From Pseudomonas putida (GTDB taxonomy: Bacteria; Pseudomonadota; Gammaproteobacteria; Pseudomonadales; Pseudomonadaceae), in contig NZ_CP039371.1 of assembly GCF_005080685.1 (NCBI RefSeq), forward strand, positions 2,790,001-2,854,000: DNA of 64,000 nt. Direction: 5' to 3'. The position numbers were made by a program, and so were the translations under genes. Below, piece by piece: positions 1-34,796 of this stretch. Within the stretch, counting starts at the first letter, position 1. Every line of letters starts with the position of its first letter. Below the pieces are notes generated by a model that made no database searches, was not told where the DNA came from, and saw only the letters and a program-made list of their open reading frames with translations.

Positions 1-81
1 GCTGGCGACGCCATAGTCACGGCAGGCGCGGGCGATACGCACGGCGATTTCGCCACGGTTGGCAATCAGGACCTTTTTCAT
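1..81 (-). CDS. Biotin carboxylase-like subunit, N-terminal fragment
   Basis: Only the first 27 codons lie in the window; the rest runs off the left edge. The visible start MKKVLIANRGEIAVRIARAC is the signature N-terminus of the biotin carboxylase (AccC / propionyl-CoA carboxylase alpha) family, which uses ATP and bicarbonate to carboxylate biotin. Its ATG overlaps the stop of the upstream pxpB-pxpC fusion (ATGA), so the two are translationally coupled. Biotin carboxylase genes are often found beside AHS1/AHS2 (PxpB/PxpC) genes. The partner substrate cannot be read from this fragment. Confidence 0.85.
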   Translation of the reverse strand, partial: MKKVLIANRGEIAVRIARACRDYGVAS

Positions 82-11303: not shown

Positions 11304-11327
11304 CGCCCGCAGTCGACCCGCGCGCCG

Positions 11328-11516
11328 TAATGCCGTTCACTTAAGCACGATATCGCCGGCATTGGGGCCGCTTTGCGGCCCTCTCGCGACACAAGGCCGC
11401 TCCCACACTGACCGTGAAGGCCTCTATCTACAGGGCAAGCTCGGAAAATGTGGGAGCGGCCTTGTGTCGCGAGAGGGCTGCGCAGCGGCCCCGGCATTCT
11501 TAAGTGAACAGCATTA
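11328..11516. mobile_element. Foldback repeat element, copy 1 (MITE-like)
   Basis: This 189-bp element begins TAATGCCGTTCACTTAAG and ends with the inverse complement of TAATGCTGTTCACTTAAG, so the termini match at 17 of 18 positions. The arms continue inward as an almost complete foldback (GGGGCCGC..., CTCGCGACACAAGGCCGC, GCTCCCACA) around a central loop of about 40 nt. It is flanked by the direct repeat ACCCGCGCGCCG at 11316-11327 and 11517-11528, as expected of a target-site duplication. No coding capacity. A second copy is at 32995-33182. The arms contain a REP-like core. Confidence 0.8.
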
Positions 11517-11520
11517 ACCC

Positions 11521-11557
11521 GCGCGCCGGAGCCGGTGCAATGCAGGCTCCGGCGCGC
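11521..11557. terminator. Hairpin between cytochrome gene and DJ-1 gene
   Basis: A perfect 13-bp stem, GCGCGCCGGAGCC (11521-11533) with GGCTCCGGCGCGC (11545-11557), encloses an 11-nt loop. It lies just past the stop of the minus-strand DJ-1 gene and probably terminates it. There is no strong T-tract. The neighbouring foldback element inserted against its outer arm. Confidence 0.55.
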
Positions 11558-32161: not shown

Positions 32162-32206
32162 GCTTGCGCTATGATGACCGCAGTCTTTCAAGGTGAAATT
32201 CAGGGC

Positions 32207-32956
32207 ATGACAGAGCAGCAGGTACAGGCACGGGTCCGGCGCAAGCCGCGCAGCCTTGCCCAGGAACTGGTCACGGTGCTGACCGAGCGTATTCGCAGTG
32301 GCCAGCTCAAGCGCGGCGACAAGCTGCCGACCGAGTCGCAGATCATGGCCGAGGAGGGCGTCAGCCGCACCGTGGTGCGTGAAGCCATCTCGCGGCTGCA
32401 GGCTGCTGGTCAGGTCGAGACCCGCCATGGCATCGGCACCTTCGTGCTGGATGCGCCAGCCACTGGCGGCTTCCGCATCGACCCGGCAACGGTGGTGACC
32501 CTGCGTGAAGTGCTGGCGGTACTGGAGCTGCGCATCGCCCTGGAAATAGAGTCGGCCGGGTTGGCCGCGCAGCGCCGCACCGACGAGCAACTGGCGGGTA
32601 TGCGCGCCGCGCTGGACGAGCTCAACGAGGGCGCCGCCCATGCCAACGATGCGGTGTCCGCAGACTTCCAATTCCACCTGCGGATCGCCCAGGCCAGCGG
32701 CAACCACTACTTCGCCGACATCATCAATCACCTGGGTACCAGCATCATTCCGCGCACTCGGCTGAATTCGGCGCGGCTGGCCCACGACGACCAAGCCCAT
32801 TACCTGAGCCGGCTGATGCACGAACATGAGGCGATCTACGAGGCCATTGCCCGGCGCGATAGCGAAGGGGCGAAGATGGCCATGCGCATGCACCTGAGCA
32901 ATAGCCGTGAGCGGCTGCGCCAGGCGCACGAAGCGGCCGAGGCGCAGAGGGCCTGA
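32207..32956 (+). CDS. GntR/FadR family regulator of the aldarate locus
   Basis: The protein has 249 residues. The winged helix-turn-helix at about 15-85 contains LKRGDKLPTESQIMAEEGVSRTVVREAISRL and GTFV; an FCD domain follows (about 95-235, with ALEIESAGLAAQRRT). It faces the kdgD-gudP-garD-aldehyde dehydrogenase operon across a convergent terminator region, and is likely the glucarate/galactarate-responsive repressor. The ATG at 32207 gives the usual lead; 32171 or 32111 are longer alternatives. A foldback element has inserted in its terminator. Confidence 0.88.
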   Translation: MTEQQVQARVRRKPRSLAQELVTVLTERIRSGQLKRGDKLPTESQIMAEEGVSRTVVREAISRLQAAGQVETRHGIGTFVLDAPATGGFRIDPATVVTLREVLAVLELRIALEIESAGLAAQRRTDEQLAGMRAALDELNEGAAHANDAVSADFQFHLRIAQASGNHYFADIINHLGTSIIPRTRLNSARLAHDDQAHYLSRLMHEHEAIYEAIARRDSEGAKMAMRMHLSNSRERLRQAHEAAEAQRA

Positions 32957-32994
32957 TAGGTTCGCTGCAGAAAAAAGAAAGCCCCGCGAATGCG

Positions 32995-33182
32995 TAATGC
33001 TGTTCACTTAAGCTCTGCATCGCCGGCATTGGGGCCGCCTTGCGGCCCATCGCGACACAAGGCCGCTCCCACAATGACCGTGAAAGCCCTTATCTACGGG
33101 GCAAGCACGGACGATGTGGGAGCGGCCGTGTGTCGCGAAAGGGCTGCGCAGCAGCCCCGGCATTCTTAGGTGAACAGCATTA
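32995..33182. mobile_element. Foldback repeat element, copy 2, inserted in a terminator
   Basis: This 188-bp element begins TAATGCTGTTCACTTAAG and ends with the inverse complement of TAATGCTGTTCACCTAAG (17 of 18 match). Interior and central loop are close to copy 1 at 11328-11516. It is flanked by the direct repeat CCGCGAATGCG at 32984-32994 and 33183-33193. Removing the element and one repeat restores GCCCCGC-GAAT-GCGGGGC with flanking AA/TT, a perfect terminator hairpin between the convergent regulator and aldehyde dehydrogenase genes. Confidence 0.85.
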
Positions 33183-33215
33183 CCGCGAATGCGGGGCTTC
33201 TTCGTTTCAGGGCAA

Positions 33216-34796
33216 TCAGAGTGCCGCTTCGCTCCACTGGCCATTGACCAGGCGACGCAGCCCCAGCGGGTTGGCGTCACGCAGTGCCTCAGGCAGCAGG
33301 GCTTGCGGGTAGTTCTGGTAGCACACCGGGCGCAGGAAGCGGTCGATGGCCAGGGTGCCCACCGAGGTGCCACGGGCATCGGAAGTAGCAGGATACGGTC
33401 CGCCGTGGACCATGGCATCGCACACCTCGACGCCAGTCGGGTAGCCATTGATCAGGATGCGGCCGACTTTCTCTTCCAGCAGTGGCACCAGCCAGGCGAA
33501 AGCTTCGAAGTCTTCCGGTTCGCCGATCAGGGTCGCGGTCAACTGGCCACGCAGGCCCAGCAGGGCGGCGCGCAGTTGGGCATTGTCCACGGCCTCGACC
33601 GCCACGGTAGTGGGGCCGAACACTTCTTCCTGCAGCAGCGGGTCCGATTCCACCAGCAGGCGAGCGTCGGCCTTGAACAGCTGGGCACGGGCCTGGCTGC
33701 CTTCCTGGGCCTGGCCGGCCAGGTGCTGGATACCGTCATGGGCGTGCAGGTGCTCCAGGCCGCCGACGTAGCTGCGCAGGCCGCCGGCGTTGAGCATGGT
33801 CTGCCCGGCTTGCTGGTCGAGGTGCTGGCCGAGGTCGGCCAGCAACTGGCTGTATTGTGGCGACTGCAGGCCGATCACCAGGCCCGGGTTGGTGCAGAAC
33901 TGCCCGGCACCCATGCACACCGAACCTGCCAGTTCACGGGCGATGGCATCGCCGCGCTTGGCCAGGGCGCCCGGCAGCACGATCACCGGGTTGATGCTGG
34001 ACATCTCGGCGAACACCGGGATCGGCTGTGGGCGCTCGGCGGCCATGCGGCACAGGGCGTCGCCGCCTTTGAGCGAACCGGTGAAGCCGACCGCCTGGAT
34101 GGCCGGATGCTTGACCAGCCATTCGCCGACGCCGCCGCCGAAGACCATGTTGAACACGCCTTTGGGCATGCCGGTACGTTCGGCTGCGCGCTGGATCGCG
34201 CAGCCGACCAGGTCGGCGGTGGCCATGTGGCCGCTGTGCGCCTTGAACACTACCGGGCAGCCGGCAGCCAGGGCGGCGGCGGTGTCACCGCCAGCGGTGG
34301 AGAAGGCCAGCGGGAAGTTGCTGGCGCCGAACACGGCGACCGGACCGACACCGATGCGCATCTGGCGCAGGTCCACCCTTGGCAGAGGTTGGCGATCGGG
34401 CAGCGCCAGGTCGATGCGAGCACCGAGGAAGTCGCCACGGCGCAGCACTTGGGCGAACAAGCGCATCTGGCCGCTGGTGCGGCCGCGCTCGCCCTGGATA
34501 CGGGCCGCCGGCAGGGCGGTTTCGCGGCAGACGATGGCGACGAAGGCGTCATCCAGCTCGTCCAGTTCTGCGGCGATGGCATCGAGGAATTCGGCGCGGC
34601 GCGCCGGCGACAGCTGGCGGAACTCGGCGAAGGCAGCGGCGGCGGCCTTGGCGGCCTGGTCCACTTCGCTTTCCAGGGCCTGGGCGAAGCTGTAGGGCAG
34701 GGCCTCGCCAGTGGTGGCGTCCACGCTTTGCAGGCGCTGTGGGCCAGCGGCGCTGCGCTGGCCGGCGATGAAGTTGTGGCCGAGGATCTCAGGCAT
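33216..34796 (-). CDS. 2,5-dioxovalerate (alpha-ketoglutarate semialdehyde) dehydrogenase
   Basis: This 526-residue NAD(P)-dependent aldehyde dehydrogenase belongs to the branch in which the catalytic Cys motif reads GQFCTNPG and the glutamate sits in FAEMSSINP. Members of this branch in aldarate operons oxidise 2-oxoglutarate semialdehyde (2,5-dioxopentanoate) to 2-oxoglutarate, the last step after garD and kdgD. The ATG at 34796 (MPEILGHNFIAGQR) is the family start. A REP doublet lies in the 168-nt gap behind garD. Confidence 0.9.
   Translation of the reverse strand: MPEILGHNFIAGQRSAAGPQRLQSVDATTGEALPYSFAQALESEVDQAAKAAAAAFAEFRQLSPARRAEFLDAIAAELDELDDAFVAIVCRETALPAARIQGERGRTSGQMRLFAQVLRRGDFLGARIDLALPDRQPLPRVDLRQMRIGVGPVAVFGASNFPLAFSTAGGDTAAALAAGCPVVFKAHSGHMATADLVGCAIQRAAERTGMPKGVFNMVFGGGVGEWLVKHPAIQAVGFTGSLKGGDALCRMAAERPQPIPVFAEMSSINPVIVLPGALAKRGDAIARELAGSVCMGAGQFCTNPGLVIGLQSPQYSQLLADLGQHLDQQAGQTMLNAGGLRSYVGGLEHLHAHDGIQHLAGQAQEGSQARAQLFKADARLLVESDPLLQEEVFGPTTVAVEAVDNAQLRAALLGLRGQLTATLIGEPEDFEAFAWLVPLLEEKVGRILINGYPTGVEVCDAMVHGGPYPATSDARGTSVGTLAIDRFLRPVCYQNYPQALLPEALRDANPLGLRRLVNGQWSEAAL

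What the first reader, a model, noticed from the sequence alone, without database searches (positions are those of the whole stretch)
32984..33193. Foldback element inserted exactly in a terminator loop
Deleting the element and one CCGCGAATGCG copy restores a perfect stem GCCCCGC-GAAT-GCGGGGC. The other copy at 11328 also lies against a perfect 13-bp hairpin arm. Two of two insertions at intergenic hairpins suggests a target preference for terminator stems, which would be a safe-haven strategy; the element's own foldback might replace the lost terminator.
Basis: partly seen in the sequence, partly recalled or inferred. Interest (0 to 1): 0.7.

Follow-up and report, generated by a model that had tools for sequence, protein, structure and literature searches.

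The report
Jumping element homing on transcription terminators
The short hairpin-shaped insert in this (likely Pseudomonas) genome belongs to a family of jumping elements that, like full IS4-type transposons of many related bacteria, sits again and again at the exact centre of hairpins predicted to stop transcription, and it is predicted to rebuild a longer stop signal at the spot it interrupts.

Summary
Window 32995-33182 is a 188-bp element with 18-bp terminal inverted repeats and an 11-bp target duplication. Removing it and one duplicate restores GCCCCGC-GAAT-GCGGGGC; three relatives carry that locus with an uninterrupted hairpin.

It is a transposase-less MITE sharing ends and duplication length with 1.4-kb IS4-subgroup insertion sequences. 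Of 115 sites with clear duplications, 92 have a stem of at least 5 bp centred on the duplication (45/61 in the window's genus, 41/43 in other named loci, 6/11 E. coli IS4), against 4-6% at nearby positions; 90 of the 92 also have an A- or T-run at the stem foot. Twelve of 12 further IS4-subgroup copies agree; 1 of 10 copies of a related type has a stem, without A/T run. The target is A-tract / GC dyad / T-tract, cut symmetrically.

The filled site is predicted to fold into one long hairpin whose base is the original stem. Termination was not tested. Whether the transposase reads sequence, dyad or extruded hairpin, and how much selection contributes, is open. De Palmenaer 2008 noted strong target-arm specificity in this subgroup; its text lacks the word 'terminator'.

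The parts
32995..33182 (+). 188-bp foldback MITE with IS4-type ends; too short for a transposase gene
32995..33012 (+). left terminal inverted repeat TAATGCTGTTCACTTAAG
   Evidence: 0 mismatches
33165..33182 (-). right terminal inverted repeat
   Evidence: 1 mismatch
32984..32994 (+). left target-site duplication CCGCGAATGCG
33183..33193 (+). right target-site duplication CCGCGAATGCG
32981..32987 (+). 5' arm GCCCCGC of the interrupted hairpin, preceded by an A-rich stretch (32970-32980)
   Evidence: fold; empty orthologues
33191..33197 (+). 3' arm GCGGGGC of the interrupted hairpin, followed by a T-rich stretch (33198-33209)
   Evidence: folds
33020..33160 (+). interior of the element (approximate): inverted sequences that I take to be REP-like, also found scattered elsewhere in the genome
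   Evidence: partial matches; alignment; the REP label is recalled
11328..11516 (+). second copy of the MITE (189 bp)
11316..11327 (+). left target-site duplication ACCCGCGCGCCG of the second copy
11517..11528 (+). right target-site duplication of the second copy; overlaps the 5' arm of the adjacent hairpin
11521..11557 (+). 13-bp hairpin (GCGCGCCGGAGCC / GGCTCCGGCGCGC) beside the second copy, off centre
32201..32956 (+). GntR/FCD regulator gene (start approximate), convergent upstream neighbour
33216..34796 (-). aldehyde dehydrogenase gene (start approximate), convergent downstream neighbour

Best explanation
The 188-bp element is a transposase-less MITE; most of its family's copies, like the IS4-subgroup insertion sequences that share its ends and duplication length, lie at the dyad axis of predicted intrinsic-terminator hairpins, and the IS4-type transposase likely selects these sites by reading the symmetric A-tract / GC-dyad / T-tract DNA itself. 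Shown: the shared 18-bp ends; duplications of 9-14 bp (nearly all 10-14); a stem centred on the duplication; A and T runs at fixed offsets outside it; and the lack of this preference in one related IS4-type group. Inferred: the MITE was moved in trans by such a transposase (none of this kind was detected in the window's own genome); the transposase dimer aligns its two-fold axis with that of the target, so that both strand joints fall symmetrically about the loop. Predicted: because target and element are both foldbacks, the product folds into one longer hairpin with the original stem still at its base beside the T-run, so termination would be kept on one or both strands. Autonomous copies would instead be insulated by a terminator-like hairpin that they carry at the likely start of the transposase gene. 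Landing between transcription units at low cost would then be the benefit to the element.
For: Stem of at least 5 bp centred on the duplication: 45/61, 41/43 and 6/11, against 4-6% of positions 20-180 bp away; with an A- or T-run 43/61, 41/43 and 6/11, against 1-3%. 84 of the 92 stems are centred within 0.5 bp of the duplication midpoint; complementarity summed over x = -6..3 is 6.99 against a shuffled mean of 4.87 (maximum 5.30 in 1000). Arms: A 61-89% at -8..-4, mirrored T 63-88%. Phylum-wide check: 12/12 copies of the subgroup against 1/10 copies of a related type with CACT ends and 9-bp duplications, that one without A/T run. Orthologous empty sites G024, G045, G009; at least 80% of the reconstructed 48-base eno site is found unbroken in 2705 of 5426 E. 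coli genomes. Transposase: Nterm_IS4 + DDE_Tnp_1 and NCBIfam IS4, Y-R-E-K positions invariant in A1. Among sites with A/T arms of at least 7/10 (3 or more on each side) and a GC core, 71/77 insertion sites have the stem, against 27/61 intergenic and 0/235 coding background sites in 100 kb of E. coli (with a looser core 33/143 and 10/516). Fold of the filled window site: one hairpin, -151.8 kcal/mol, z -13.7, original outer stem present; outer stem present in 35 of the 40 MITE sites that have a stem. Terminator-like hairpin at the transposase-proximal end in 56 of 56 elements of 1-2 kb listed.
Against: 23 of the 115 sites lack the stem, including the window's second copy and copies at palindromes that I take for REP-like, without A/T runs. 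E. coli IS4 also sits inside bcsG, yicI and ydcO. In E. coli intergenic DNA sites with arms of 9-10/10 are all terminator-like already (10/10), so arm reading and dyad reading are hard to separate. The refolding test is not specific: after swapping in another site's right flank, 72/120 still form the outer stem. A generic terminator scan found none at the window site or at one empty orthologue. No transposase of this kind was detected in the window's genome (a search without a positive control). A different IS4-type element of the window's genome also sits in a short palindrome, three times in the same one, so hairpin targeting may not be confined to this subgroup. No experiment was possible.
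Confidence: 0.75

Rival explanations
1. Survivorship: insertion is broad and selection removes all but the harmless sites just after genes, so terminators are where survivors remain.
For: The two window copies lie between genes and E. coli IS4 copies inside genes exist, so genic insertion happens.
Against: Survivorship predicts any harmless position, not a stem centred within 0.5 bp of the duplication midpoint (84 of 92 stems). Positions 20-60 bp away have such a stem with an A/T run in 1-2%. Copies of a related IS4-type group show no preference (1 of 10).
Confidence: 0.1
2. Structure or transcription recognition: the transposase (or its host partner) binds an extruded DNA hairpin, or a terminating RNA polymerase or R-loop, rather than linear A-tract/dyad/T-tract DNA.
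For: Stem pairs covary beyond column composition; at similar A/T arms the stem is more frequent in insertion sites (71/77) than in intergenic background (27/61); a few copies sit beside palindromes without A/T runs (L067-L069).
Against: The A and T runs keep a fixed offset from the duplication edges, and three E. coli sites without the stem keep arms of at least 7/10 (L168, L169, L170). A 10-14-bp staggered join fits B-form DNA better than two separate hairpin loops (general knowledge of DDE transposases).
Confidence: 0.22
3. REPIN-like spread: the element is a REP pair moved by a REP-associated tyrosine transposase and the terminal repeats are incidental.
For: The interior is built of inverted sequences found elsewhere in the genome, which look REP-like (recalled).
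Against: 18-bp terminal repeats identical to those of IS4-subgroup IS and duplications of the same length. I did not search for a RAYT gene.
Confidence: 0.03

Closest known systems
IS4 family, subgroup IS4 (E. coli IS4; a source names a related transposase ISAzvi6; plasmid relatives named ISAeme15)
   Same: Same transposase domains, (T/C)AATG ends, duplications of mostly 10-14 bp, and similar target arms
   Different: The window element is a 188-bp derivative without a transposase; E. coli IS4 targeting is looser (6 of 11 sites; 7 of 12 with fumB, seen by eye)
'IS4 family goes genomic' target consensus (PMC2266710; passages read, Figure 3 not visible to me)
   Different: 'Terminator' does not occur in its main text; no link to terminators in the passages read
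Group IIC introns inserting after intrinsic terminators (stated in passages of PMC3522654, which cites Robart 2007)
   Same: Terminator as homing site, safe-haven logic
   Different: Retroelement that inserts downstream of the stem; here a DDE-type element splits the stem at its dyad
IS elements at REP palindromes, e.g. ISPsy8 at a REP symmetry axis and ISRm22 of the IS4 family in REPs (PMC1525189; passages)
   Same: Insertion into an extragenic palindrome, for ISPsy8 at its symmetry axis
   Different: Target is one repeat family (3-bp duplication for ISPsy8), not terminators of unrelated sequence
MITE-like intergenic repeats of Pseudomonas fluorescens (R0, R2, R6; PMC2718517; passages)
   Same: Short repeats with inverted repeats, tail-to-tail gene bias, IS-like ends for R0 and R2
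   Different: That paper explains the bias by stem-loop termination and selection; I could not compare its repeat sequences with this one

Membership tests
MITE of the IS4 family, subgroup IS4 | terminal repeats shared with an autonomous element | tested here: met
   same 18-bp ends on 1420-1422-bp elements with a transposase gene in the same genus; one of the three genes is broken
MITE of the IS4 family, subgroup IS4 | no transposase of its own; short; multicopy | tested here: met
   188 bp; about 20 copies or remnants in the window's genome
MITE of the IS4 family, subgroup IS4 | same target-duplication length as the autonomous element | tested here: met
   mostly 10-14 bp for both
MITE of the IS4 family, subgroup IS4 | mobilised in trans by that transposase | not testable with these tools
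   no such transposase detected in the window's genome
IS4 family (likely parent elements) | DDE transposase with Y(2)R(3)E(6)K signature | tested here: met
   Pfam and NCBIfam matches; Y312, R315, E319, K326 invariant in A1 including E. coli InsG
Intrinsic terminator as target | GC stem-loop followed by a T-run (or mirrored A-run) | tested here: met
   stem plus A/T run in 90 of 115 sites; a stricter generic scan found none at two sites tried
Intrinsic terminator as target | terminates transcription in the cell | not testable with these tools
   no expression data
Group IIC intron | group II intron RNA | tested here: not met
   terminal repeats and target duplication instead; no group II intron among the Rfam matches at 32800-33400
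REPIN moved by RAYT | no target duplication (recalled feature) | tested here: not met
   11-bp and 12-bp target duplications; presence of a RAYT gene not searched

The most novel reading that the evidence does not exclude
A clade of cut-and-paste DDE transposons has evolved to home on intrinsic transcription terminators as a class, reading their A-tract / dyad / T-tract symmetry and splitting them at the two-fold axis; its foldback MITEs make the insertion self-healing, because the product is a longer hairpin with the same base, while the autonomous copies carry their own terminator. This would be a protein-encoded counterpart of group IIC introns and a general safe-haven strategy across Gammaproteobacteria.
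Probability: 0.6. Interest if true: 0.78.

Novelty: new variant of a known kind. Interest (0 to 1): 0.68.

Why it matters
If right, transposons of a classic and widespread family choose a functional class of genomic site rather than a fixed sequence, which would explain why IS4-type copies and their MITEs gather between genes and how they persist at low cost. It makes a testable link between target recognition by a DDE transposase and terminator architecture, offers a natural marker of terminators, and suggests a route by which bacterial terminators grow into long extragenic hairpins.

Tried and rejected
Chance: rejected. Survivorship alone: disfavoured. Arms alone as the cue: not fully excluded, because strong arms imply a terminator in E. 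coli intergenic DNA (10/10). The refolding of the outer stem as proof of terminator repair: rejected as proof, because the flank-swap control keeps it in 72 of 120. Empty-site search for the copy at 11328: no spanning hit among 76 genomes. Rfam at the window site: no match reaches its gathering score; the best sub-threshold hits are to microRNA precursor models, which I take to reflect the long hairpin only. PDB by sequence: no match to the transposase.

Rows dropped before the counts: window's genus 27 duplication unclear, 41 without two ends, 2 duplicate sites (of 131); named loci 22, 13 and 2 (of 80); E. coli 1 unclear and 3 duplicates (of 15). The 131 loci are 22 of the window's genome and 109 from places listed, which does not list every place or genome; 66 of 298 genomes had an exact end. 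Of the 61 kept, 58 are MITE-sized (42 with stem) and 3 IS-sized (3 with stem). The 80 named loci are the best 80 of 194 confirmed; of the 43 kept, 10 come from one Xanthomonas arboricola genome, 9 from Thaumasiovibrio occultus and 4 from Pectobacterium aroidearum. E. coli records were picked by me from a spread list of 60 (15; 7, of which fumB was the one new site with a clear duplication); the eno terminator counts twice, once for each orientation of the insert. From the 50 loci scanned, one search took 12 with AATG-type and 9 with CACT-type ends; left out were repeats of the same copy, L294 (AATG type, duplication unclear, flanks look like a terminator), short or unresolved loci, the three CATC-type copies of the window's genome (stem 5), L321 of another type (no stem) and L306 (CACT type, no stem), the last five scored.

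Papers: ten searches, seen as listings; passages only of PMC2266710, PMC1525189, PMC2718517, PMC10969869, PMC6382973, PMC3733652 and PMC3522654. That I saw no report of terminator targeting by IS4 elements rests on these only. Insertion of IS4 in the pheST attenuator (Mayaux 1984) is recalled, not seen.

Full report
What is there. The finding is real. At 32995-33182 lies a 188-bp foldback with 18-bp terminal repeats (one mismatch), flanked by CCGCGAATGCG twice. It separates the 3' ends of two convergent genes, a GntR/FCD regulator and an aldehyde dehydrogenase. A second copy, 189 bp with a 12-bp duplication, is at 11328-11516, after a cytochrome c gene and before a convergent DJ-1/PfpI gene.

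Empty sites. Deleting the element and one duplicate gives a hairpin with a 7-bp GC stem and A- and T-rich flanks. Among 76 genomes searched with the joined flanks, three (G024, G045, G009) match along nearly the whole query; each has the locus without the element's end sequence and with an uninterrupted GC hairpin, e.g. AAAAGGCCCCGC-AATC-GCGGGGCCTTTT. No spanning hit was found for the second copy.

Copies in the same genome. Matches to the whole element and to its ends give some 20 copies or remnants. Ten distinct sites have a clear target duplication; nine have a stem of at least 5 bp centred on it. The exception is the window's second copy, whose duplication overlaps one arm of a 13-bp hairpin off centre.

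The likely parent. 66 of 298 genomes of the genus have at least one exact end. Three pairs of ends lie 1420-1422 bp apart and hold an IS4-type transposase gene, whole in two and broken into two reading frames in L077. The protein has Nterm_IS4 and DDE_Tnp_1 domains, matches NCBIfam IS4, and is 36% identical to E. coli InsG with the YREK positions kept. This protein found no relative in the window's genome (the tool warns that an empty answer without a positive control shows little), although three copies of a more distant IS4-type transposase are present. So this strain's MITEs look stranded, and mobilisation in trans is inferred.

Target statistics. I took 131 loci from the window's genus, 80 from a scan of named genomes and 15 E. 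coli IS4 loci, kept those with two ends, a clear duplication and a new site (61, 43 and 11), and joined the flanks at the duplication. A stem of at least 5 bp centred within 2 bp of the duplication midpoint occurs in 45/61, 41/43 and 6/11, against 4-6% of positions 20-180 bp away. With an A- or T-run at the stem foot the figures are 43/61, 41/43 and 6/11, against 1-3%. Of the 92 stems, 84 are centred within 0.5 bp of the midpoint; 70 have both runs, 20 have one, 2 have none. Duplications are 9-14 bp, mostly 11-13.

Shape of the target. Aligned on the duplication edges, the site reads A-tract at -8..-4, then C/G-rich stem, duplication with the loop in its middle, stem, and a mirrored T-tract. 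Paired positions agree more than their composition predicts (6.99 against 4.87, maximum of 1000 shuffles 5.30). Among sites with arms of at least 7/10 and a GC core, 71 of the 77 insertion sites that qualify have a stem, against 27/61 intergenic and 0/235 coding sites in 100 kb of E. coli K-12 (P 7e-10 against intergenic; overlapping registers are counted, so P is approximate). With the strongest arms (9-10/10) intergenic background sites all have a stem too (10/10), so arm reading and dyad reading cannot be fully separated.

Breadth and negative control. The 43 named loci come from Pseudomonas, Xanthomonas, Reinekea, Pokkaliibacter, Marinobacterium, Hahella, Marinomonas, Aeromonas, Aliidiomarina, Shewanella, Aestuariibacter, Thaumasiovibrio, Zobellella, Pectobacterium and unnamed Oceanospirillaceae, Alteromonadaceae and other gammaproteobacterial genomes; 10 are from one Xanthomonas and 9 from one Thaumasiovibrio genome, so sites are more independent than elements. 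A separate phylum-wide search by family gave 12 further distinct copies with AATG-type ends from two genomes; 12 of 12 sit in stems with A/T runs. Ten copies of a related IS4-type group with CACT ends and 9-bp duplications, handled the same way, gave 1 of 10 stems and, for that one, no A/T run. The preference is therefore not produced by the method and is not common to all IS4-type elements. It may not be confined to this subgroup: a third type, with CATC ends, sits three times in one 11-bp palindrome of the window's genome (stem 5, one run of 4).

E. coli IS4. This classic element shows a looser form. Sites after bamD, zapB, eno (both orientations), adhE and fumB, and one seen after glcA and in a like sequence of another record, are terminator-like stems; those in bcsG, yicI and ydcO, after a YcgL-domain gene and at the K-12 nan-region locus are not. 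Three of the stemless sites keep arms of at least 7/10.

How it may work. The target's two-fold axis coincides with the midpoint between the two strand joints, as expected if a transposase dimer reads two half-sites of A-tract plus GC. This is inference. Recognition of an extruded hairpin or of terminating transcription is the main rival.

Consequence for the terminator. The filled window site is predicted to form one long hairpin, -151.8 kcal/mol (z -13.7; other strand -149.4), in which the original outer stem is paired at the base, still next to the T-rich tail. In 35 of 40 MITE sites that have a stem, the original outer pairs appear in the predicted fold, but with another site's right flank 72 of 120 do as well: the consensus arms are complementary anyway. 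Termination by the filled site is therefore predicted, not shown. All 56 elements of 1-2 kb carry a terminator-like hairpin (typically AAAATCCG..CGGATTTTTT) 33-102 bp inside the transposase-proximal end. It ends at a likely ATG or GTG start; in E. coli some records, and the longest open frame (TTG start), begin inside it, so the true start is not settled. It would limit read-through into the transposase gene.

What is known. De Palmenaer 2008 describes strong target-arm specificity for some subgroup IS4 elements without the word 'terminator' (Figure 3 not seen). Tobes and Pareja 2006 report IS at REP palindromes, one on the symmetry axis. Group IIC introns insert downstream of terminators. In the listings of ten searches of the open library, and in passages of seven papers, I saw no report of terminator targeting by a DDE transposon; subscription papers and ISfinder were not available.

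Verdict. New variant of a known kind: an ordinary MITE and a known IS subgroup, with a target preference for terminator-like hairpins that is statistically strong, broad within Gammaproteobacteria and, as far as I could search, not described as such. That the genus is Pseudomonas is inferred from the named owners of near-identical transposases.

Noticed in passing
L324, L325, L326 (G000:C1 near 1535088, 5293840, 6195761): Three copies of a different 1417-bp IS4-type element (ends CATCCCTTTCAAGGTC, 11-bp duplication) all sit in the same short palindrome GCCGTAAAGGC with similar flanks: a second IS in this genome that may target a hairpin (no Rfam match).
   Followed up: partly
56 elements (L077, L079, 43 of L171-L246, 11 E. 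coli loci), 33-102 bp inside the transposase-proximal end: Terminator-like hairpin, typically AAAATCCG..CGGATTTTTT, at the likely transposase start in every autonomous-sized IS4-subgroup copy listed.
   Followed up: partly
L221, L225-L227, L230-L241, L243-L246 and most E. coli loci, right ends: In these copies the right terminal repeat itself forms a hairpin followed by a T-run, read inward from outside the element.
   Followed up: no
G000:C1:2781272-2782198 (just before the window) and 6369402-6370190: Parts of the MITE interior recur with periods of 265 bp (four times) and 334 bp (three times), suggesting tandem arrays.
   Followed up: no
L162 (G214:C1:4818900-4823900): An IS4-subgroup copy 3780 bp long that also holds an IS66-like transposase gene (my reading of the ORF, no family search); its duplication still marks a hairpin.
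   Followed up: no
L067, L068, L069: MITE copies whose target lies at a REP-like palindrome without A/T runs and off the dyad: a possible relaxed target.
   Followed up: no
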